From Actinomycetota bacterium (lineage in GTDB: Bacteria > Actinomycetota > Actinomycetes > Streptosporangiales > Streptosporangiaceae): a stretch of DNA of 32,005 bases. The DNA is taken from positions 1-32,005 of the forward strand of contig DAHUZQ010000145.1 in assembly GCA_027306495.1 (NCBI GenBank). The letters are read 5' to 3'. The notes under the pieces are model-generated. The model had not been told where the DNA came from, did no database searches, and saw only the letters and a program-made list of their open reading frames with translations. Positions 20,936-32,005 of the stretch are shown here, piece after piece. Position 1 is the first letter of the stretch, and the number at the start of each line of letters is the position of its first letter. The translations under genes and the position numbers were made by a program.

Positions 20936-23900
20936 TCAGGGGCCTTCGCCGGCTTCCCAGGCGCGGCAGAGGGCGTTGGCCAGGTACATCTGGCGGGGGG
21001 TACGGCAGGCGACCCGCAGCAGGCCGGGGCTCGCGACGATGACGGCCATCGCCTTGGCGCGGGAGGTGGCCACGTTCAGCCGGTGCAGGTCGTACAGGAA
21101 CTCCAGGCCGCGCGGCGCCTCGTCGGCCGAGGAGGTGGCCATCGAGTAGATGGCCACGGGGGCCTCCTGCCCCTGGAACTTGTCGACGGTCCCGACGCGG
21201 ACCGCGGCGGCGCCGGCCTCGCCGGCCATCCGGAGGGCGTCTTCGATCTCCCGGATGTGCGCGTTGTAGGGGGTCACGACGAGGATCTCACCGGGGCCGA
21301 TCGGCTGTTCGTGGCCGTGCCGGTCACGCCACTGGCGGCCCAGCAGGCCGAGAACGAGCGCGGCCACCCGGCCCGCCTCTTCGGCCGAGGCGTTCGCGTT
21401 GTCCTCGTGCGGCACGGCGATGACGCGCAGCCCGGCGCCGCCCGGCGACATGTCGCCGGGCGTCACCTCGCCGAGGATCTGCTGGCGCTCAAGTCCGTCC
21501 ACCCCGGTCAACTGCCCGTCGTAGAAGACCTGCGAGGTGAAGTCGCGCAACCGCGGGTGCATCCGCCAGGTGGTGTCGAGGAGCAGCCCGGCCTCGGCGG
21601 GCATGGTCGCCCGGCCGCTCAGGATGTGCTCCAGCGGCGACACCCCCGCCCCGGGCGGATGCGCGGCCTGGCTGGGCTGGGCGAGTTGCTGCGGGTCCCC
21701 GAGCAGGATCAGGTTCCGGGCCGCACCGGCCACCGCCAGTACGTTGGCCAGCGACAACTGGCCGGCCTCATCGACGAACAGGGTGTCGACCCCTCCCGCC
21801 ATCTCCGGGCGAGACCAGAGCCACACGGTGCCGGCGGCCACATCGAGTTCACCGTCGCGCAGCGCCCGCGCCAATGCCTCGTTGGACATTCCCTGGGCGT
21901 CCCGGTGCAGGTGAGGGTTGTCTTTGTCGGCGCGCTGGCCGATGCGGACCGTCATCCCGCAGTCCGCTGCCTGCTGGCGCACCATGGAGATGAAGTTGTG
22001 GATGACCGCGTGCGATGGGGCGGTGATCCCCACCGGGCGGCCCGCCCGGATCAGGGCCAGGATCTGCCGCGCCCCGTTGTAGGTCTTCCCCGTGCCCGGC
22101 GGTCCCTGGATCGGCAGGTAGGAGGCCTGCAACGCGACCGCGAGCCGGACCGCCGCATCACCCGCTGATTCCTCTTCCCGCCGCAACGATCTGGCCGGAA
22201 CGGCGCCTGCGGCAGGTGCAGGAGCACCCACGGCAGGAGGGGCGGCGCTGGCAGGAGGGGCGGCGTCAGCGGGCGCGGCGTGGGCCGGGGCAGCGGTGCC
22301 GGCAGCCGGGGGCAGACCGACGGCCGGCGGAAGCCGCTGCAGCAGCGCGGTCGCGGCGTCCGCGCCGGAAACGCCCTCCCGCACGACCCGCTCTCCCAGG
22401 TCACGGAGCCGTTCCCGGAGCTCGCGGGTCCCGGGCGGTGGTTCGGGGATCAGCGCGGCCGGAAGTGGGTTCGGGTTGCTCTTGCCCACCTTGAGCCTGA
22501 TCGTGCCGCGCTCGTCATCCAGGTCACAGATCGTCCAGGTCTTCCCGGTGACGGGATCGACGCCGCGATCGTTCCCGGAGAAGCGGTGCTCCTGGGGCGG
22601 GAACCCAAATTCGCGGATGACCGACTGCTTCTCCTCACCGACGATCTCGCCGCCGGTCAAGCCGCCGAGCGCGTCCGGTTCGCCGGCCAGGTCATCGCCG
22701 CTCAGCGTGCACAGGTAGAAGTACCGCCACCAGGCCGGCTTGGCTTCCCGGCGGTGCCAGTCCAGCAGATCGGCGAGCAGCGCCTTGGCCCTGTGCTCAT
22801 CGGTGCGCTCCGCCGGGTCTACCGGAATGCCCGTGAGCAGTGCCGCCCGGATCCGGGTGACCTCTGGGTCCTCTTGCGTGTCGGTCTCTGCCGCGACGGC
22901 TGGCCGGGGCAGGTCTTCACCGAGCCGACCGGGCAGTTCAGCCCGGCGTTCCTCCAGCCAGTCGCGCAGGGCCAGGGTGGCCCGGCAGTCGTCCTCGTTG
23001 TAGGCCGCGATGACCCGTTGCTCGCCGTCGGTGTCCGTTGCGGCCCGGTCCCCGTCCTCCAGGGCGGCCTCGAACGCGATCAGGTTGCGGGTCGCCTCCC
23101 GCAGGTCCATGAGCCGGGCGTAGCCGCACAGCGGCTCCAGTCGCTTGATCGAGTAGCTCTCCACCCCGGCGCGCAGCCCCTGCCGGACGACCCGGTAGAG
23201 GTCGACGAACACGCCGAGCCGGAACAGGTCGTCCACCTCGTCCTCGCGGGTGGCGTACCGGCCCATCAGGCGGCCGACGGCTTCGGCCCGGGTCTCGTGG
23301 AGTTCGGTGAGATGGTCCACCGAGGTCGGCTCGTAGTGGTTGTAGTGGTAGACGTGCAGGCGGGGGTTGCGCTTGCGGCGGTCGGTGATGAAGTCGATCA
23401 GTTCCTCGAACGCGCGCTTTTCGCCCCGGCGGCCGAACGAATCACGCTGGCGGTCGCACGACCAGATCTGGGTGTACCGAGGTAGGCCGGCCTCATCGGT
23501 TTCCGCCGTGTCCACGACGCCGAACAGGTACTGCAGGCCGAATTCCTGGCCGTCTTCGCTGTAGTAGCGGGCGCCCTCGATGTCGAAGAACAGGTCACCG
23601 GGGGTGGGTTCGGGAAGAGCGAGCAGTCCGCGGTTGGGGATCAGTTCGCCGAGGTCGTTCCGTTCAGGATCCAAAATCTCGTAACGGATCGCACCATCAT
23701 CCTCGCTGGCGATTTGCAACCGGGCCTGCAACCGGGCGCGCTGGAGAGATTCCCCGCCTGCCCGGCTCACGGCCGGCAATTCGCCGAGGGCCGCGAACCC
23801 GCGCCGGGTGCTGACGCCGGCGGCTTTCAGCGCCTTCCGCTGTCCCTTCGTGATCCCCGCGATCAGTGACAGGTCGTCATCGCTTCGGCGCCGCGCAGCG

Positions 23901-24664
23901 CACAACCCGCTCCACCGGCAGATGGCGCAGTGCTCGACCGGGTCCGGGTAGGGATCGGTGGGCGGATTCTCGCCCGGATCGCCCGCGATGAAAGCGGTCA
24001 GCGAGCGCCGGGCCTGCCGTTCATAGGCTGCATAGTCGTCAACCTTGAAAGGCTTGCGCTCGCCGTTGCCCAGCGCCAGGTGCATCCAGCGTGGGGAGAC
24101 GCCCTGCACACCGGCGAGCAGATGCGAATAGAACGCGGTCTGCGCCACCGCCCGCGCCTTCGCTGACCGTGCCAGCTTCGCATCGACGACTTCGTAATGA
24201 ACGGCTGCCGGGCGCGGTTCACCGTCCGGTGCGGGCAGCAGGTCGGCGCGGATGAGGAAGTCGGGCCGGCCCAGCAGGGCGGGCCGGTCTATCGCGTGTT
24301 CGTCCCGGGCGTGTTCGTCCCCGGCGGGCGGGGTCTGCGCGGGCTGATGGAGCAGTACGCCCTGGTAGATGATCTCGGCGCCGGACCGCATGGCGTCCAG
24401 CGTGGCGCTCGCGGCCTCTGCCTCCGCCCCGGGAGCGGAGGAGATCCCGGTGATCTGGAGCCCGTCCTTGCTGAACTCATCGAGGATCTGCTGCTCGTGG
24501 GCGATCCCGCGCCTGACCAGTTCCTCGAAGCCGAGGTCGAAGGTTTCGGGAGGCTGGAGTTGGTGGCGCGCCTTCAGCAGGTCCAGCCGGGTCAGGTGCC
24601 GGCAGGCGAGGAAGTTCGCGACGTCGCTCGCCGACAGCCGAAGCCGGCCATCACTGATCTGCAC
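20936..24664 (-). CDS. TM0106-type RecB-like nuclease / RNase H-like / UPF1-type helicase fusion
   Basis: 1242 residues from GTG 24664 (GGGAG 8 bases upstream); ATG 24700 would add 12 residues. The N-terminal PD-(D/E)xK nuclease shows GRPDFLIR and YEVVDAK at about 156-162. Cys21 together with CAICRWSGLC near 242-253 gives the four cysteines of a Cas4/AddB-like Fe-S site. An RNase H-like domain starts with GDLFFDIEGARYY near 355 and ends with EDDCRATLAL. A Pro/Ala-rich linker near 790-830 leads to a superfamily 1 helicase: GPPGTGKT near 855, LFVDEAGQL near 958, LILLGDPQQLAQ, TVDKFQGQE and RLNVATSRAK near 1193. The whole is the TM0106-family architecture joined to a Dna2/UPF1-like motor. It likely processes DNA or RNA ends in repair or defence. 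It diverges from another nuclease-helicase gene. Confidence 0.88.
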   Translation of the reverse strand: MQISDGRLRLSASDVANFLACRHLTRLDLLKARHQLQPPETFDLGFEELVRRGIAHEQQILDEFSKDGLQITGISSAPGAEAEAASATLDAMRSGAEIIYQGVLLHQPAQTPPAGDEHARDEHAIDRPALLGRPDFLIRADLLPAPDGEPRPAAVHYEVVDAKLARSAKARAVAQTAFYSHLLAGVQGVSPRWMHLALGNGERKPFKVDDYAAYERQARRSLTAFIAGDPGENPPTDPYPDPVEHCAICRWSGLCAARRRSDDDLSLIAGITKGQRKALKAAGVSTRRGFAALGELPAVSRAGGESLQRARLQARLQIASEDDGAIRYEILDPERNDLGELIPNRGLLALPEPTPGDLFFDIEGARYYSEDGQEFGLQYLFGVVDTAETDEAGLPRYTQIWSCDRQRDSFGRRGEKRAFEELIDFITDRRKRNPRLHVYHYNHYEPTSVDHLTELHETRAEAVGRLMGRYATREDEVDDLFRLGVFVDLYRVVRQGLRAGVESYSIKRLEPLCGYARLMDLREATRNLIAFEAALEDGDRAATDTDGEQRVIAAYNEDDCRATLALRDWLEERRAELPGRLGEDLPRPAVAAETDTQEDPEVTRIRAALLTGIPVDPAERTDEHRAKALLADLLDWHRREAKPAWWRYFYLCTLSGDDLAGEPDALGGLTGGEIVGEEKQSVIREFGFPPQEHRFSGNDRGVDPVTGKTWTICDLDDERGTIRLKVGKSNPNPLPAALIPEPPPGTRELRERLRDLGERVVREGVSGADAATALLQRLPPAVGLPPAAGTAAPAHAAPADAAPPASAAPPAVGAPAPAAGAVPARSLRREEESAGDAAVRLAVALQASYLPIQGPPGTGKTYNGARQILALIRAGRPVGITAPSHAVIHNFISMVRQQAADCGMTVRIGQRADKDNPHLHRDAQGMSNEALARALRDGELDVAAGTVWLWSRPEMAGGVDTLFVDEAGQLSLANVLAVAGAARNLILLGDPQQLAQPSQAAHPPGAGVSPLEHILSGRATMPAEAGLLLDTTWRMHPRLRDFTSQVFYDGQLTGVDGLERQQILGEVTPGDMSPGGAGLRVIAVPHEDNANASAEEAGRVAALVLGLLGRQWRDRHGHEQPIGPGEILVVTPYNAHIREIEDALRMAGEAGAAAVRVGTVDKFQGQEAPVAIYSMATSSADEAPRGLEFLYDLHRLNVATSRAKAMAVIVASPGLLRVACRTPRQMYLANALCRAWEAGEGP

Positions 24665-24802
24665 GGACCTCTCCCAGTGAGTGTCATGGCGGCAAGCCAT
24701 CAGCCACCTACACCAGAAGCTATGCCAGGCGGCGGAGGTCGAGAGATCTGTTTGCGGCGGTATACGGTGTCAGGCGACTTGTTATCCGAAGGGGGAGCCG
24801 CA

Positions 24803-27800
24803 GTGGCCGAGAGTGATTCGCCGTTTCTGGCGGTCCCGGCCTCTGACTGGCTCGTATCGAACCGTTCTGCCTTTGCCATCGCGGACCGTTTCCCGGTCAG
24901 TCCCGGGCACACCCTGGTGGTGCCAAGGCGCCCGATCACGACCTGGTGGGGGGCTACCAGCGAGGAGCGGGCGGACATCCTCGCCCTGATCGACGAGGTC
25001 AAGCGCACGCTCGATGATGAGCGGCATCCGGACGGTTACAACGTCGGGTTCAACGCGGGTGAGGCTGCCGGGCAAACGGTCGGGCACTTCCATATTCATG
25101 TGATCCCGCGTTATCGCGGTGACGTCGCTGATCCGCGCGGCGGAGTGCGGCATGTCATTCCCGGTAAAGGCAATTACCTGCTCGCCGCCGACGGGCCGGC
25201 CGCGCTGGTCGACGGGCAGGATCGGTTGCTCCGGGACGAGTTGCTCCGTTGCCTGCGCGATCGGCGGTTCGACCACGTCGATCTGCTGGTCAGCTTCATC
25301 ATGAAGTCGGGACTCGAACTGGTCCATGGTGGGCTGGGCGACGCACTGGACCGGGGGGCCAAGGTCAGGGTGCTGACCACGGACTACCTGACGGTCACTG
25401 ACGCGGACGCCCTGGCCCGGCTACTGGACCTCGCCGAACTGCGGCCGGACTCGGTGGCCACGCGTGTCTTCCACGACCCGGCCACGAGTTTCCACCCGAA
25501 GGCCTACCTCTTCTCGTCCGCGGACGGCTCTGCTGCGGTGGCGTTCGTGGGCAGCAACAACCTCAGCGCGTCGGGTATCGCGGGGGGCATTGAGTGGGCG
25601 ATCGGCGCCGACCGGGTCGCGCCGCTGCTGACCGCCTTCGAGCGGTTGTGGGACGACGCTCGCAGTCAGCCCCTCTCCCATGAACTGCTGGCTGATTACC
25701 GTCAGCGGTGGCGGCGGGCTGTCCGGGGCGGGGGTCCCGGCGGTGAGGTGCCCACAGCCCCGGTGGCGGGTGTGGTGGCGGAACCACAGGCGACTGCGCC
25801 CAGCCCCTGGCCTGTGCAGCGGGAGGCGCTGACAGCGCTCGAACACTCCCGGCAGGAAGGGTTCCGCAGGGGGCTGGTCGTCATGGCGACAGGGCTGGGC
25901 AAGACGTGGCTCGCCGCGTTCGACACCGCCCGGCCGCAGTTCCGGCGGGTGCTGTTCGTCGCTCATCGCGAGGAGATCCTGCGCCAGTCCCTGGACGTCT
26001 TCCGCCGGGTGCAGCCGGACGGGGACCTTGGCCTGTACTACGGACAGCAGAAGCAACCGGGTGCACGGGTGGTCTTCGCGAGTGTTGCGACCCTCGCCCG
26101 CAATCTGCACCGGTTCGCGGCCGATGAATTCGACTACCTGGTGGTGGATGAGTTCCATCACGCTGCCGCCCGCAGCTACCGCCAGGTGATCGATCACTTC
26201 CACCCGGCGTTCATGCTCGGGCTGACCGCCACACCCAACCGGATGGACGGCGCCGACCTGCTCGCGCTGTGCTCGGACAAGCTGGTCTACGAATGCCCGC
26301 TTACGGACGGCATCGAGCGCGGCGACCTCAGCCCGTTCCGGTATTTCGGGATCGCGGACGATGTCGACTACGCACCCATTCCCTGGCGTGGCGGGCGCTT
26401 CGACCCCGGCGCGCTGACGCAGGCTGTGGAGACGCAGGCGCGTGCCCGGCACGCGCTGGAGGTCTGGCGCGCGAAGGGGGGTGGCCGCACCCTCGGCTTC
26501 TGTGTCACCGTCAGCCACGCGGACTTCATGGCCGAGTTCTTTGGCCGGAACGGCGTCGCGGCTGTCGCTGTGCACAGCGGACCGTCCAGCGCCCCCCGTG
26601 CGGGCTCACTGGAGCGGCTGCGTGCCGGTGACCTGCAGGTCATTTTCACGGTCGACGTGTTCAACGAGGGCCTTGATGTCCCGGAAGCTGACTCGATACT
26701 CATGCTGCGGCCTACCGAGTCCCCGGTGGTGTTCCTGCAGCAGCTTGGCCGTGGCCTTCGCCGCAGCGAGGGCAAGACCGCCCTGACCGTGATCGACTTC
26801 ATCGGCAACCACCGCAGCTTCCTCATCAAGCCGCGCACCCTGCTCGCCCTGCGGGCTGATGGCCGGATCAGCACCGACAAGGTGCTCCGGGCTGTGCGGA
26901 CCGGCGACTTCGGCCTGCCACCCGGGTGTTCGGCCACCTACGACGTGGAGCTTGTGGACATTCTCCGCGGGGTCGCCAGGGTCGGCGGACGGTCGGCTCT
27001 GGAGGACTACTGCCGGTCCTACGCCGATGAGCGTGGTCGCCGGCCCACCGCGGTGCAGGCCTATGAAGCCGGGTACAACCCAGCGTCGGCCCATGGCACC
27101 TATGGTCACTGGTTCGCGTTCCTGGGCGACCTCGGCCTGCTGGCCGAGCAGGAGGGGGAGGTGCTGCGCCGCAACTGCGACGTGCTGGAGGGCATCGAAA
27201 AGGAGGCGATCACCAAGTCGTACAAGCTGGTGACCCTGCAGGCGCTGCTCCAGATGGGCGCACTGCGCACCGGAGCGGATATCGCGGAGATCGCCTGGAC
27301 CGCGCACCGGATCGTCACCGGTGATCCGCGCCTGCTGGCGGACACCCGTTCGGCTGAGATGCCCGATCCGTCGTCCGTGGGCGCCGACGCATGGCGGGAG
27401 TACTGGCTGAACTGGCCACTGGCCGCCTGGGCCGGGCGGCTGCGCGGTGCGTCGGCGGGCTGGTTCCGCATCGAGGGCCGGCGCTTCGTTCCCGCCTTCC
27501 GGGTGGCCGACGAGGTGGGCGAGGCGTTCGACACCATGGTCGGGGAACTCGTTGACTACCGGCTGGCCCGGTACCTGTTCGCGAAGGGAAATCGCGCGAG
27601 CCCGCTGGAGGCGGCGTTCCGGCTCAAGGTCATCCAGACCCACGGGCGTCCGATCCTCATGCTCGACCGCGCCCGCAACCCCGGCTTGCCCGAAGGTGAG
27701 GCGTCGTTCATCGCCGACGGCATCGTGTACTCGGGCAACTTCGCCAGGATCGCCCTGAACGTCGTGCACCGTCCGGGCCATCCGGGCAACCTGCTGCCCG

Positions 27801-27955
27801 ACCTGCTGCGGTCCTGGTTCGGGCCGGACGCGGGTCAGCCGGGCACGGCGCACCACGTCGCCCTGGTCCCCGGGAAGCCCCACTGGCAGATGCGGCCGAC
27901 GGCACCGGGAACCGCGAGCATTCGGGCGGCTCGCCACCTCGAATCGGGCCAGTGA
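24803..27955 (+). CDS. HIT / phospholipase-D nuclease / DEAH helicase / DUF3427-like fusion
   Basis: 1050 residues from GTG 24803, with GGGGGAG about 6 bases upstream; upstream in-frame ATGs lie inside the divergent gene and are rejected. Residues 10-115 are a HIT domain with HFHIHVIPR (His95, His97, His99), a nucleotide-phosphate hydrolase or transferase fold. Residues about 150-270 are a PLD-like nuclease half with SFHPKAYLF (His231, Lys233) and GSNNLSASG. A superfamily 2 helicase follows: ATGLGKTW with Lys367, VVDEFHH (Asp449-His452), LGLTATPNRMD and QQLGRGLRR near 646-654. The remaining 350 residues resemble DUF3427 in position and composition. PLD-helicase-DUF3427 proteins occur in many bacteria and are suspected of DNA repair or phage defence; the N-terminal HIT is a notable addition. 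A hairpin ends the gene. Confidence 0.88.
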   Translation: MAESDSPFLAVPASDWLVSNRSAFAIADRFPVSPGHTLVVPRRPITTWWGATSEERADILALIDEVKRTLDDERHPDGYNVGFNAGEAAGQTVGHFHIHVIPRYRGDVADPRGGVRHVIPGKGNYLLAADGPAALVDGQDRLLRDELLRCLRDRRFDHVDLLVSFIMKSGLELVHGGLGDALDRGAKVRVLTTDYLTVTDADALARLLDLAELRPDSVATRVFHDPATSFHPKAYLFSSADGSAAVAFVGSNNLSASGIAGGIEWAIGADRVAPLLTAFERLWDDARSQPLSHELLADYRQRWRRAVRGGGPGGEVPTAPVAGVVAEPQATAPSPWPVQREALTALEHSRQEGFRRGLVVMATGLGKTWLAAFDTARPQFRRVLFVAHREEILRQSLDVFRRVQPDGDLGLYYGQQKQPGARVVFASVATLARNLHRFAADEFDYLVVDEFHHAAARSYRQVIDHFHPAFMLGLTATPNRMDGADLLALCSDKLVYECPLTDGIERGDLSPFRYFGIADDVDYAPIPWRGGRFDPGALTQAVETQARARHALEVWRAKGGGRTLGFCVTVSHADFMAEFFGRNGVAAVAVHSGPSSAPRAGSLERLRAGDLQVIFTVDVFNEGLDVPEADSILMLRPTESPVVFLQQLGRGLRRSEGKTALTVIDFIGNHRSFLIKPRTLLALRADGRISTDKVLRAVRTGDFGLPPGCSATYDVELVDILRGVARVGGRSALEDYCRSYADERGRRPTAVQAYEAGYNPASAHGTYGHWFAFLGDLGLLAEQEGEVLRRNCDVLEGIEKEAITKSYKLVTLQALLQMGALRTGADIAEIAWTAHRIVTGDPRLLADTRSAEMPDPSSVGADAWREYWLNWPLAAWAGRLRGASAGWFRIEGRRFVPAFRVADEVGEAFDTMVGELVDYRLARYLFAKGNRASPLEAAFRLKVIQTHGRPILMLDRARNPGLPEGEASFIADGIVYSGNFARIALNVVHRPGHPGNLLPDLLRSWFGPDAGQPGTAHHVALVPGKPHWQMRPTAPGTASIRAARHLESGQ

Positions 27956-28930: not shown

Positions 28931-29046
28931 ACCCGCGTGGCGCGAGCGGGCCGGCCGGACCGTAGTTGCCTGCGCCGGGGTTGTCGGGCAGGCTGAGTGA
29001 GCCTGGAACGCTGTGGAAACACTCCTGCCGGAGAAGGGTCGCGCCG

Positions 29047-29919
29047 ATGAAGTTGCCTCCCGTTGACTACGAGGCGCCGAAGACCGTTTCCGAGGCTCTG
29101 GAACTGCTGACCGAGCATCAGGATGAGGCGAGCATGCTCGCTGGGGGCCAGAGCCTGATCCCGCTGCTGGCGCTGCGGCTCGCCCGCCCGGCGGTGCTCA
29201 TCGACATCAACGGTCTCTCCGAGCTTGCCGGGGTGTCGGCGGACGACGGCTGGGTGAGGATCGGCGCCATGACGCGGGAGTATGTCGCCGAGGAATCCGC
29301 GCTCATCGCAGATGCCGTCCCGCTGCTGGCGGCTGCGCTGCCGTTGATCGGCCACGAGGCGATCCGCAGCCGCGGCACGGTCGGCGGCAGCCTGGCGCAT
29401 GCCGACCCGGCAGCGGAACTGCCCGCTGTCGCCCGGGCGCTGGACGCCGAGTTCGTCGTGCGCAGCGCGTCAGGGGAACGGGTCATCCCGGCCGCGGACT
29501 GGTTCGAGGGCTATCTCACGACCTCGCGCCGCGTGGACGAGCTTCTTGTGGAGGTGCGCGTCCCTGCCGCGGGACCGGGTACGGGAATCAGCTTCCAGGA
29601 GGTCGCCCGGCGCCACGGTGACTTCGCGATCGTGGGCCTGGCGGTATCCCTGACGATTTCCGGCGGCGTGATCGGCGATGCCCGGCTCGCGTTCGCCGGC
29701 CTCTCGGATGTGCCGGTCCGGGCCGGCGACGCGGAGGACCTGCTGGCCGGAGAGCGGCCGTCGGCGGAACTCTTCGAGGAGGCGGCCCGCCGGGCGACCG
29801 AGGATCTCGACCCGCCGGCTGACCTGCACGGGTCGCCGGAGTACCGGAAGAAAGTCGCGACCGCCCTGGTGCGCCGCGGCCTGCGAGCGGCCGTGGACAA
29901 CGCCGGCGAGAGGCAGTGA
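29047..29919 (+). CDS. Molybdenum hydroxylase FAD-binding medium subunit (CoxM-like)
   Basis: 290 residues from ATG 29047 (GAGAAGGG about 8 bases upstream); the frame is open further upstream, without a better start. FAD contacts of the family are visible: AGGQSL at 32-37 and TVGG at 111-114 followed by SLAHADPAAELPA. The C-terminal CODH flavoprotein domain (GDARLAFAGLSDVPVRA) is present. It transfers electrons from the iron-sulphur subunit to the acceptor. It is the first gene of an M-S-L operon, and its stop lies directly before the small subunit gene. Confidence 0.93.
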   Translation: MKLPPVDYEAPKTVSEALELLTEHQDEASMLAGGQSLIPLLALRLARPAVLIDINGLSELAGVSADDGWVRIGAMTREYVAEESALIADAVPLLAAALPLIGHEAIRSRGTVGGSLAHADPAAELPAVARALDAEFVVRSASGERVIPAADWFEGYLTTSRRVDELLVEVRVPAAGPGTGISFQEVARRHGDFAIVGLAVSLTISGGVIGDARLAFAGLSDVPVRAGDAEDLLAGERPSAELFEEAARRATEDLDPPADLHGSPEYRKKVATALVRRGLRAAVDNAGERQ

Positions 29920-29927
29920 GGCGAGAA

Positions 29928-30395
29928 GTGGACATCACCCTGCGCGTCAACGGCGCGACATGCACGGGCTCGCCCGAGGCGCGCAAGACGCTCGCGGACT
30001 TCCTGCGTGACGACCTCGGCCTCACCGGCACTCATCTCGGCTGCGAACACGGGGTCTGCGGCGCGTGCACGGTCATCGTGGACGGCCGGGCGGTGCGTTC
30101 GTGCCTGATGCTGGCGGTCCAGGCCGACGGCAGTGAGGTGACGACGATCGAAGGCCTGGCACCGGACGGCGAACTGGGCGGCTTGCAGCAGGCGATGTGG
30201 GATTCGCACAGCTTCCAGTGCGGATTCTGCACACCCGGTTTCGTCATGCAGGCGACGGCGTTGCTGCGCGCCCACCCCGGTGCCGGCGAGCAGCAGATCC
30301 GGGAGGCGCTGTCCGGCAACATCTGCCGGTGCACCGGCTACCAGAGCATCATCGACGGCGTGCTGCTGGCCGCCGAGCGGGCACGTCAGAGCTGA
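29928..30395 (+). CDS. Molybdenum hydroxylase 2Fe-2S small subunit (CoxS-like)
   Basis: 155 residues from GTG 29928, with GAGG 6 bases upstream; the alternative GTG 29916 overlaps the previous stop by four bases and adds MRRE. The protein start DITLRVNG fits the family. Two 2Fe-2S clusters are complete: Cys39, Cys44, Cys47 and Cys59 (CEHGVCGAC plant-ferredoxin type), and Cys98, Cys101, Cys133 and Cys135 (CGFC with CRC). It carries electrons between the molybdenum centre and FAD. Order and spacing place it in one operon with its neighbours. Confidence 0.94.
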   Translation: MDITLRVNGATCTGSPEARKTLADFLRDDLGLTGTHLGCEHGVCGACTVIVDGRAVRSCLMLAVQADGSEVTTIEGLAPDGELGGLQQAMWDSHSFQCGFCTPGFVMQATALLRAHPGAGEQQIREALSGNICRCTGYQSIIDGVLLAAERARQS

Positions 30396-30407
30396 GGCGG
30401 GGAGATC

Positions 30408-32005
30408 ATGGCAGGCATCGTGGCCGAGCGCTACACCGGCGCCAGCATCAAGCGTTCCGAGGACCCGCGCATCCTGACCGGCTCGGGCCGCTACGTCGAC
30501 GACATCAAGCTGCCCGGGATGCTGCACGCCGCGTTCGTGCGCTCCCCGCTGGCGCACGCGCGGGTGCTCTCCGTGGATGTCTCGGCCGCGCGGGCGCTGC
30601 CCGGGGTGGTCGCGGTGTTCACGGGAGCGGAACTGGAGGCGATGACCGTCCCCGGGCCGGACGCGCTGTCGGCTCTCATGGGCGGCGGTGGCCCGACTCC
30701 GGAGTACTCCCTGCTGGCGACCGACAAGGTGCGCTTCGTCGGCGACCCGGTGGCGGTCGTCATCGCCGAGAGCCGTTATCTCGCCGAGGACGGCTGCGAA
30801 CTGGTGGACGTCGAGTACGAGGATCTGCCGCCGGTCGCGAACGCGTCCTCCGCGCTCGACCCGGGCAGCCCGCCGCTGTTCGCCAACCTTGGCGACAACA
30901 TCGTCCGCCCGCATTCACGCAACGAGTTCGGCGACGTCGCCGCTACGTTCGCTGGCGCTGACCGCGTCTTCGACTTCCGCATCGATGTGCACCGCCACCA
31001 GAACGTGCCCATGGAGGGACGCGGCTGTGTCGCGAGCTATGACGCCGAAACCGGTGTGCTGACCGTCCATGCGGCCACGCAGAGCGTCCACGTCAGCAAG
31101 ATCGCGGTCGCCATGCGGCTCGGCATGGAGCACGACAAGGTGCGGGTGCTCGCCGGCGATATCGGCGGCTCGTTCGGGCTCAAGATCGGTGCCTCACGGG
31201 AGGAACTCGCGGTCGCGGCGGCCTCGCGCGCGCTGCGCCGGCCGGTCAAGTGGGTCGAGGACCGCGGCGAAAATCTCACGGCGTCGGGGCAGGCGCGCGA
31301 GGAGAGCTTCGACGTCCGGGCTGCCGTCAGCGACGACGGCGACCTGCTCGGGCTGGACGTGAAGGTGGTCATCGACACCGGCTCGTACCCGGGAATGGGC
31401 TCGATGGTTCCGGCCATCATGGAGGCGATGCTGCCCGGCCCGTACAAGGTGGCGGCCTTTGGTTTCGAGTCGACCGCGGTCACGACGAACAAGGCTTCGT
31501 ACGTCGCCTATCGCGGTCCGTGGGCGTCGGAGACGTTCGTGCGGGAACGCGTCCTCGATCTCGTCGCGGCCGATCTCGGCCTCGATCCGCTCGCGATCCG
31601 GCTGCGCAACGTCGCGCCCCGCACCGATCCGCCCGCCGCCATGATCACAGGCCGGCCGCTGGTCGGAATCACCACCGCGGATTCATTGGAACGAGTTGCC
31701 CAGCGCGTGGACTTTCCCGCGTTCCGGCGCAGGCAGGCCGAGGCCCGAACGCGGGGCCGCTACCTCGGAATCGGTGTGGCGACGTTCATCGAGGCGGCCC
31801 CCGGGCCACGCTCGCCGGGGGAGCCGAGCGGCCCGATGGGCACCGAGACCATGCGCCTGCGGCTGGCGGAGGACGGCATGGTTGTGCTCTTCACGGGCCA
31901 GATGCCGCACGGCCAGGGCCATCAGACCACCCTTGCCCAGATCGCCGCCGACCAGTTCGGCGTGCCGTTCGAGCAGGTCCGCGTCGTCGTCGGGGACAGC
32001 GACGT
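30408..32005 (+). CDS. Molybdenum hydroxylase large subunit (CoxL/XDH-like), cut by window end
   Basis: At least 532 residues from ATG 30408 (GGGGAG directly upstream); about 250 more are expected beyond the edge. The N-terminal Ald_Xan_dh_C-type domain (EDPRILTGSGRYVDD, HAAFVRSPLAHARV) and the molybdopterin-binding part are clear. GGSFGLK at 253-259 and PHGQGHQTT near the end contact the molybdopterin cytosine dinucleotide cofactor. The active-site loop reads AYRGPWA at 367-373, instead of AYxCSFR of true CO dehydrogenase (form I) or AYxGAGR of form II. It therefore hydroxylates an unknown aldehyde, purine or other N-heterocycle rather than CO. Maturation genes may lie to the right. Confidence 0.92.
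   Translation, partial: MAGIVAERYTGASIKRSEDPRILTGSGRYVDDIKLPGMLHAAFVRSPLAHARVLSVDVSAARALPGVVAVFTGAELEAMTVPGPDALSALMGGGGPTPEYSLLATDKVRFVGDPVAVVIAESRYLAEDGCELVDVEYEDLPPVANASSALDPGSPPLFANLGDNIVRPHSRNEFGDVAATFAGADRVFDFRIDVHRHQNVPMEGRGCVASYDAETGVLTVHAATQSVHVSKIAVAMRLGMEHDKVRVLAGDIGGSFGLKIGASREELAVAAASRALRRPVKWVEDRGENLTASGQAREESFDVRAAVSDDGDLLGLDVKVVIDTGSYPGMGSMVPAIMEAMLPGPYKVAAFGFESTAVTTNKASYVAYRGPWASETFVRERVLDLVAADLGLDPLAIRLRNVAPRTDPPAAMITGRPLVGITTADSLERVAQRVDFPAFRRRQAEARTRGRYLGIGVATFIEAAPGPRSPGEPSGPMGTETMRLRLAEDGMVVLFTGQMPHGQGHQTTLAQIAADQFGVPFEQVRVVVGDSD

What the first reader, a model, noticed from the sequence alone, without database searches (positions are those of the whole stretch)
24803..25150. 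HIT domain fused to the front of a PLD-helicase protein
The HIT motif HFHIHVIPR is intact and in frame directly before the PLD nuclease half. HIT proteins act on nucleotide phosphates or adenylated ends (for example aprataxin on 5-prime AMP-DNA). Here the domain might clean blocked DNA ends or act on a nucleotide signal before nuclease and helicase action.
Basis: partly seen in the sequence, partly recalled or inferred. Interest (0 to 1): 0.5.

Follow-up and report, generated by a model that had tools for sequence, protein, structure and literature searches.

The report
Nucleotide-hydrolase domain on a DNA-shredding enzyme
A bacterial enzyme that resembles the DNA-shredding restriction enzyme SauUSI carries an intact histidine-triad (HIT) domain at its front end, and similar HIT domains are sometimes found beside or fused to other kinds of DNA-cutting enzymes, hinting at an unrecognised chemical step in defence against foreign DNA.

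Summary
Window 24803-27955 (+) encodes a 1050-aa protein: HIT (Pfam 1.5e-20, HFHIH intact), PLD nuclease core (HxK), SF2 ATPase, helical region, small C-terminal beta domain. The start is supported by an SD-like GAAGGGGGAG before GTG 24803 and by a start-aligned mycobacterial homologue; the HIT part is under purifying selection (dN/dS 0.07-0.21 in six pairs). The PLD-SF2 core is SauUSI-like (PDB 7clg, 6e-76), but SauUSI's SRA-like recognition domain is absent here, though present in some HIT-bearing relatives.

On a tree, HIT and degraded-HIT rows lie on one side of one branch (92/85): 13 keep HxHxH; 12 degraded rows form one nested alphaproteobacterial group, Nannocystis is apart.

New here: the domain belongs to a HIT subfamily with a DPRGGVR tail. 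Of 25 sampled members without the PLD-SF2 fusion, 10 are fused to or next to an HNH or phosphorothioate-restriction-like nuclease (Pfam supports 7); a less thorough look at 20 other HIT loci found none adjacent. This points to a nucleotide-bond hydrolase serving restriction-type nucleases. The substrate is untested.

The parts
24803..27955 (+). CDS, HIT-PLD-SF2 protein, 1050 aa, GTG start
   Evidence: SD-like GAAGGGGGAG at 24788-24797
24803..25192 (+). HIT domain (residues 1-130), Fhit-like motif, with subfamily tail
   Evidence: Pfam HIT 1.5e-20; alignments A1, A3, A4
25085..25099 (+). histidine triad HFHIH (H95, H97, H99)
   Evidence: sequence; the three His invariant in 16 of 16 rows of A4
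25130..25177 (+). subfamily tail DPRGGVRHVIPGKGNY
25205..25792 (+). PLD nuclease domain; H231xK233 at 25493-25501, N253, E264
   Evidence: PLDc_2 3.1e-5, below its gathering score; 7clg; H, K, N, E in 17 of 17 rows
25808..26902 (+). SF2 helicase-like ATPase (ATGLGKT, DEFHH, LTATP, QQLGRGLR)
   Evidence: ResIII 1.6e-36, Helicase_C 1.8e-13
26903..27592 (+). helical region, coupler-like position
   Evidence: model secondary structure
27608..27907 (+). C-terminal beta domain with WFGPDAG motif; the window protein ends after it, whereas some relatives go on into S24 and/or SRA-like DUF3427; no confident PDB match
20936..24700 (-). divergent neighbour, RNase_H_2/RecB-like plus SF1 helicase; related gene also near the HIT-PLD gene in L007, L010 and L120 (fragment in L008)

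Best explanation
The protein is a SauUSI-like, ATP-dependent PLD restriction nuclease that carries its own HIT enzyme. The PLD-SF2 core would bind foreign DNA, translocate and cut it (inferred from SauUSI). The HIT domain belongs to a subfamily that pairs with several unrelated restriction-type nucleases. It most likely hydrolyses a nucleotidyl-phosphate bond met during restriction: first candidate, AMP-blocked 5' DNA ends left when ligase tries to reseal the cuts, so that breaks stay open; second, a small dinucleotide or modified nucleotide. Shown: architecture, intact triad, selection, nuclease pairing in part of the subfamily. Inferred: catalysis, substrate, defence role.
For: HIT intact, in frame and under purifying selection. 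PLD-SF2 core matches SauUSI 7clg (6.1e-76; Foldseek 1.9e-37; PADLOC mREase_IV 3.3e-105). HIT and degraded-HIT rows on one side of one branch (92/85). Subfamily tied to nucleases: 10 of 25 non-PLD-SF2 members; Pfam supports 7 of the 10 above its own cut-offs. One HNH neighbour scores 1.8e-17 to phosphorothioated-DNA restriction endonuclease, below that model's cut-off. Controls: 0 of 20 adjacent. Fisher p 0.012 for 7 of 25, 0.0011 for 10 of 25. 4 of the 6 plasmid records read have an HNH or HNH-family gene next to the HIT. HNH-HIT is one polypeptide in L108, L109 and L117. NUDIX-annotated genes lie directly upstream of SauUSI-like genes in 3 of 10 plasmid loci read.
Against: No activity or substrate was measured. 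The HIT degraded in one alphaproteobacterial group while the nuclease core stayed conserved, so HIT catalysis is not required everywhere. 33 of 37 genomes of the window's phylum with a SauUSI-like match showed no HIT in the match. 12 of the 25 non-PLD-SF2 members showed no nuclease. The count was not blind: subfamily loci were also read by eye; nine of the ten positives were in the training sets of the models (only L095 was not); four (L095, L101, L114, L116) had been found by an earlier model not trained on them. Controls were searched only with those models and a Pfam listing cut to 25 of 95 families. With one hidden control p is 0.059 (7) or 0.012 (10), with two 0.26 or 0.040. The HIT tree does not show the subfamily as one clade. 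The three NUDIX neighbours belong to distant HIT-less PLD-helicases. No aprataxin zinc finger was found.
Confidence: 0.45

Rival explanations
1. The HIT degrades a small nucleotide (ApnA alarmone, nucleotide phosphoramidate or modified nucleotide) that triggers or follows infection, or that would otherwise provoke self-cleavage. It acts as a switch or house-cleaner for the nuclease, like the role proposed for ThsC.
For: Nearest named models are Ap4A-phosphorylase/ATP adenylyltransferase and Fhit. NUDIX-annotated genes adjoin HIT-less SauUSI-like genes; a nucleotide pyrophosphohydrolase gene follows in L128. HIT in 2.4% of Thoeris systems, with such a role proposed (PMC8565338, passages).
Against: Nothing seen here ties the subfamily to a signal-producing enzyme. 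Fusion to and pairing with nucleases fits DNA-end work equally well.
Confidence: 0.32
2. The HIT is mainly a binding or structural module (nucleotide or DNA-end sensor, dimerisation), and its catalysis is incidental.
For: In the degraded alphaproteobacterial group the triad is HxHxR or HxHxV and the GH and AGQ loops are gone, yet the region is kept with dN/dS 0.065-0.32 in five pairs.
Against: 45 of 46 subfamily domains keep HxHxH. The middle His persists in 16 of 17 rows of A1. Another HIT, MccH, works with HxHxK (PMC7157772, passages), so HxHxR need not be dead.
Confidence: 0.16
3. A chance fusion with no role in restriction; a generic housekeeping HIT captured once.
For: A single origin of the PLD fusion is compatible with the tree, the HIT was degraded later in some, and about half of the non-PLD subfamily members had no nuclease neighbour.
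Against: HIT-PLD proteins in Actinomycetota, Pseudomonadota and Gemmatimonadota; purifying selection; the same HIT subfamily meets nucleases in other arrangements.
Confidence: 0.07

Closest known systems
[quoted passage not shown]
   Same: PLD with HxK, SF2 ATPase, helical region after it; sequence and Foldseek match over the PLD-SF2 core
   Different: Window has an added N-terminal HIT; lacks the C-terminal SRA-like TRD/DUF3427 and ends in another beta domain; SauUSI's Glu of HxKx4E is Ser238 here; the whole models do not superpose (TM 0.28-0.35, rmsd about 25) (PMC7913695 section 24 read)
Fhit / Ap4A phosphorylase-like HIT proteins
   Same: HxHxHxxPR with AGQ before it; best named PDB and NCBIfam matches, the latter far below cut-off
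   Different: DPRGGVR..IP...Y tail; fused or adjacent to nucleases in part of the subfamily
Aprataxin
   Same: HIT chemistry on nucleotidyl bonds; DNA context (recalled)
   Different: No zinc finger or FHA found by Pfam in the window protein
ThsC (HIT of Thoeris type II)
   Same: HIT in a defence gene set; weak profile match 7.9e-9
   Different: No Thoeris partner recognised among the 10 window ORFs scanned

Membership tests
HIT superfamily | HxHxHxx triad and HIT profile | tested here: met
   HFHIHVI; Pfam HIT 74.1 bits vs cut-off 21.5
HIT superfamily | nucleotide hydrolase or transferase activity | not testable with these tools
   none
Aprataxin | zinc finger following the HIT (recalled) | tested here: not met
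   no zinc-finger family among Pfam matches at E 0.001
SauUSI-type restriction enzyme | PLD nuclease with HxK | tested here: met
   H231, K233 in 17 of 17 rows of A1; 7clg 6.1e-76
SauUSI-type restriction enzyme | HxKx4E with the Glu | tested here: not met
   Ser238 in window, variable in A1
SauUSI-type restriction enzyme | SF2 helicase-like ATPase after the PLD | tested here: met
   ResIII, Helicase_C; K367, D449, E450, R650, R653 in 17 of 17 rows
SauUSI-type restriction enzyme | C-terminal SRA-like TRD (DUF3427) | tested here: not met
   no DUF3427 match in window; found in HIT-bearing relatives L013, L039 and in L107
SauUSI-type restriction enzyme | ATP-dependent cleavage of modified DNA | not testable with these tools
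   none
Thoeris type II (ThsC) | HIT gene together with thsA/thsB | tested here: inconclusive
   no ThsA or ThsB model among the 10 window ORFs scanned; other window ORFs were not scanned

The most novel reading that the evidence does not exclude
The DPRGGVR-tailed HIT subfamily includes a dedicated accessory enzyme of modification-dependent restriction. Attached to PLD-helicase, HNH and phosphorothioate-type nucleases by separate fusions and operons, it carries out a nucleotidyl-hydrolase step (for example stripping AMP from ligase-activated 5' ends so that cuts cannot be resealed) for which my searches found no description in any restriction enzyme.
Probability: 0.27. Interest if true: 0.78.

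Novelty: new variant of a known kind. Interest (0 to 1): 0.55.

Why it matters
Restriction is usually described as recognise, move, cut. A nucleotide hydrolase attached to several nuclease types would add a step after or around the cut, such as blocking repair by ligase or gating by a nucleotide. It would give a testable handle on how phages reseal restricted DNA and how type IV-like enzymes avoid or tolerate self-damage. It also gives candidate substrates to test on a small domain.

Tried and rejected
Viral spread: no IMG/VR contig matched the six exact peptide patterns. In phages and plasmids no record covered 80% of the protein; HIT-less PLD-helicases are present there.

C-terminal domain: profile search of the PDB gave only matches at E 0.6-0.92, Pfam nothing for the window stretch. 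A separate model (pLDDT 85) had no Foldseek match under 0.001. VIA-align on the whole model showed 50 rows that, by their ranges and titles, are nearly all helicase-domain matches; SauUSI is not among the rows shown. It does not test the HIT, PLD or C-terminal parts.

Literature: searches found no paper describing a HIT fused to or paired with a PLD-helicase or HNH restriction nuclease. Passages opened in PMC10693628, PMC12839542 and PMC11090510 were not about it; passages in PMC7159879 and PMC3874153 concern DUF3427/SauUSI without HIT. Absence in this library does not prove absence in print.

Promoter/terminator scan: none found; sigma-70 consensus only.

HIT tree: few columns, bootstrap not settled; the control HITs fall in two places (2 changes, though supported branches force only 1), so the subfamily is defined here by profile score and tail, not by the tree. 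The HNH label needs 11 changes there, hardly fewer than shuffled labels (mean 13.8; 16 of 500 as low), so I do not count 11 gains.

One search used a wrong reading frame and was discarded; one search repeats it. Rows dropped before the PLD-SF2 tree: duplicates L001, L037, L067, L123, L092, L119, L120, L121, L122; partial proteins L015, L094 and, by the same list, L031, L035; over-long envelopes L036, L124. L021 was kept but not labelled (cut by contig end). The tree is rooted at the midpoint; L033, L014 and L066 have long branches and unsure places. The labels 'degraded' of L029, L129 and L033 rest on position and residual motif only; the HIT profile did not detect them, and it detected the other ten only weakly (5.7e-5 to 0.013).

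Full report
CHECK OF THE OBSERVATION. The ORF 24197-27955 (+) holds HIT, PLD and SF2 domains in one frame. The likely start is GTG 24803, after GAAGGGGGAG at 24788-24797. It aligns with the first possible Met of the mycobacterial homologue L009, whose frame has a stop two codons earlier. The divergent gene's first start codon is at 24700. The HIT domain scores E 1.5e-20. The AlphaFold model has mean pLDDT 83.7; blocks of residues 11-80 score 86-93, the triad and tail (81-130) 50-82.

NUCLEASE CORE. The best PDB relative is SauUSI 7clg by sequence (6.1e-76) and by Foldseek (1.9e-37), though the whole chains do not superpose (TM 0.28-0.35, rmsd about 25). PADLOC calls it mREase_IV (3.3e-105). 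H231, K233, N253 and E264 of the PLD and the main SF2 residues are in 17 of 17 rows of A1. The Glu of SauUSI's HxKx4E motif (PMC7913695 section 24) is Ser here. The window protein has no DUF3427; L013 and L039 have it, and L039 also has a Peptidase_S24 domain. So the window protein is SauUSI-like in its core but fails a defining feature, the SRA-like TRD. It ends in a beta domain without a confident PDB match.

DISTRIBUTION AND HISTORY. One scan of GTDB contigs gave 29 loci from several phyla. In the window's phylum 37 of 396 genomes had a match at 1e-60, of which 4 carried the HIT in the match; 26 of the other 33 were fetched and none had a HIT-profile match in the protein. In the window's order 19 of 150 genomes had a match at 1e-100, two with HIT (window and G504); of the 17 others 13 were fetched (L068-L080), without HIT. 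In Alphaproteobacteria 3 of 337 matched at 1e-100: G545 and G879 with HIT, G619 a partial match without. On a midpoint-rooted tree of 77 rows the HIT and HIT-degraded rows (with the unlabelled L021) lie on one side of one branch (92/85); the 12 degraded alphaproteobacterial rows form one nested group (99/86); Nannocystis is apart, on a long branch. In A1, 16 of 17 keep the first two His of the triad and 11 of 17 the third. Degraded copies lack the GH and AGQ loops but are still constrained (dN/dS 0.065-0.32 in five pairs). MccH, a HIT with HxHxK, is active (PMC7157772 passages), so HxHxR is not proof of inactivity.

SELECTION. dN/dS of the HIT region in six intact pairs is 0.070-0.207: close to the PLD's in the window group (0.07-0.08 against 0.07-0.12), about twice the PLD's in L009-L010, L009-L039 and L011-L093.

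A HIT SUBFAMILY THAT OFTEN MEETS NUCLEASES. A profile of DPRGGVR-tailed HITs (A4) shows a score gap in 730 genomes: members at E 1.5e-33 or better, other HITs at 3.1e-28 or weaker. Members: 13 in 194, 8 in 240 and 8 in 296 genomes; the fused G162 lies below the gap at 2.1e-27. Four of these 29 are PLD-SF2 fusions (G000, G074, G258, G545). Of the other 25, ten have a nuclease-type domain in the same ORF or the next one: HNH operon type (L088, L095, L101, L114, L116), HNH-HIT single protein (L108, L109, L117), phosphorothioate-restriction-like HNH neighbour (L100), and an N-terminal half of that type fused to HIT (L099). L113 keeps only the N-terminal part of the HNH-HIT type and is the eleventh HMM match. 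L107 is HIT joined to DUF3427, a deletion-like relative of the PLD fusion. L096 lies beside a YhcG PDDEXK gene. No nuclease was found in the other 12. Pfam supports L100, L101, L108, L109, L114, L116 and L117 above its cut-offs; L099 has a weak NCBIfam match (1.7e-6); L095 had no match in either library; L088 was not scanned there.

LIMITS OF THAT COUNT. I read the subfamily loci by eye as well as by model. Nine of the ten positives were in the training sets of the models; L095, L101, L114 and L116 had been found by an earlier model not trained on them. Controls were 20 of the top-ranked other HITs, not a random draw, examined with the same models (one weak match, 8.6e-4, about 4.5 kb away in L151) and by a Pfam scan of 97 of their own and neighbouring ORFs in which no HNH family was among the 25 shown of 95; families with one or two members could be hidden. 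Fisher p against 0 of 20: 0.0011 (10 of 25), 0.012 (7 of 25); against 1 of 20: 0.012, 0.059; against 2 of 20: 0.040, 0.26. On plasmids I read the six best-ranked of 86 records: 4 of 6 have an HNH or HNH-family gene next to the HIT (Hymenobacter, Aromatoleum, Polaromonas, Persicobacter); Jeotgalibacillus and Paraburkholderia do not. The Hymenobacter neighbour is annotated HNH in the record but had no Pfam match. On a HIT tree the subfamily is not resolved as one clade; 45 of 46 subfamily rows keep HxHxH.

OTHER NUCLEOTIDE ENZYMES NEARBY. Of 10 hand-picked plasmid loci with SauUSI-like genes read, 3 have a gene annotated (deoxy)nucleoside triphosphate pyrophosphohydrolase directly upstream (Hymenobacter, L. 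plantarum, L. curvatus; NUDIX checked by Pfam in the first only). These three PLD-helicases are distant from the HIT-bearing ones on the tree. In the HIT-fused Gemmatimonadota locus L013 a NUDIX ORF lies about 0.5 kb upstream on the same strand, with another ORF between. E. coli NudG acts on 5-methyl-dCTP (PMC5158307 passages), which would fit guarding the nucleotide pool of a cell with a 5mC-dependent nuclease. HIT and NUDIX enzymes also share ApnA as substrates (recalled).

MECHANISM. Shown: architecture, intact triad, selection, nuclease pairing in part of the subfamily. Inferred: that the HIT is active and serves restriction. Because its partners differ in fold (PLD-SF2, HNH), the common factor is cut or modified DNA, not the helicase; this favours DNA-end or nucleotidyl-adduct chemistry. 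The choice between 5'-AppDNA and small nucleotides is open.

LITERATURE. Searches found no description of this fusion or pairing. ThsC shows that HITs occur in defence sets and was proposed to handle a nucleotide signal (PMC8565338 passages).

Noticed in passing
L009, L038, L039, L040 (C-terminal third); L033: LexA-like Peptidase_S24 domain (Pfam-tested in L039, seen by alignment in the others) after the helicase; in L009, L038, L039 and L040 it is followed by a DUF3427-like end.
   Followed up: partly
L107:5402-6490 (-): HIT joined to DUF3427 with most of the PLD-SF2 part missing; looks like an in-frame deletion relative.
   Followed up: partly
L016, L019, L023, L025 upstream; L124:3284-3886: A class I SAM-methyltransferase-like ORF directly upstream of degraded-HIT or HIT-less PLD-helicases (Pfam-tested in L019, annotated in L124, by eye in the others).
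   Followed up: partly
L008:570-3056, L009:3370-5835, L010:3371-6082, L120:3302-5830: SMC/RecF-like ATPase gene near actinobacterial HIT-PLD-helicase genes; no match among window ORFs at 1e-10.
   Followed up: partly
L120:12739-13989; L010:9920-10609: McrBC-component gene and GIY-YIG nuclease gene near HIT-PLD-helicases, a defence-island-like setting.
   Followed up: no
window 28966-32003: FAD-binding and molybdopterin-binding dehydrogenase genes downstream; apparently unrelated metabolism.
   Followed up: no
L087:6031-6360 (Streptomyces phage phiSASD1 gp4): A phage carries a free HIT with the same PRGGVR tail; could be a counter-defence or nucleotide gene.
   Followed up: no
L128:3412-7047: SauUSI-like gene flanked by two genes annotated as nucleotide pyrophosphohydrolases on a Lactiplantibacillus plasmid.
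   Followed up: partly
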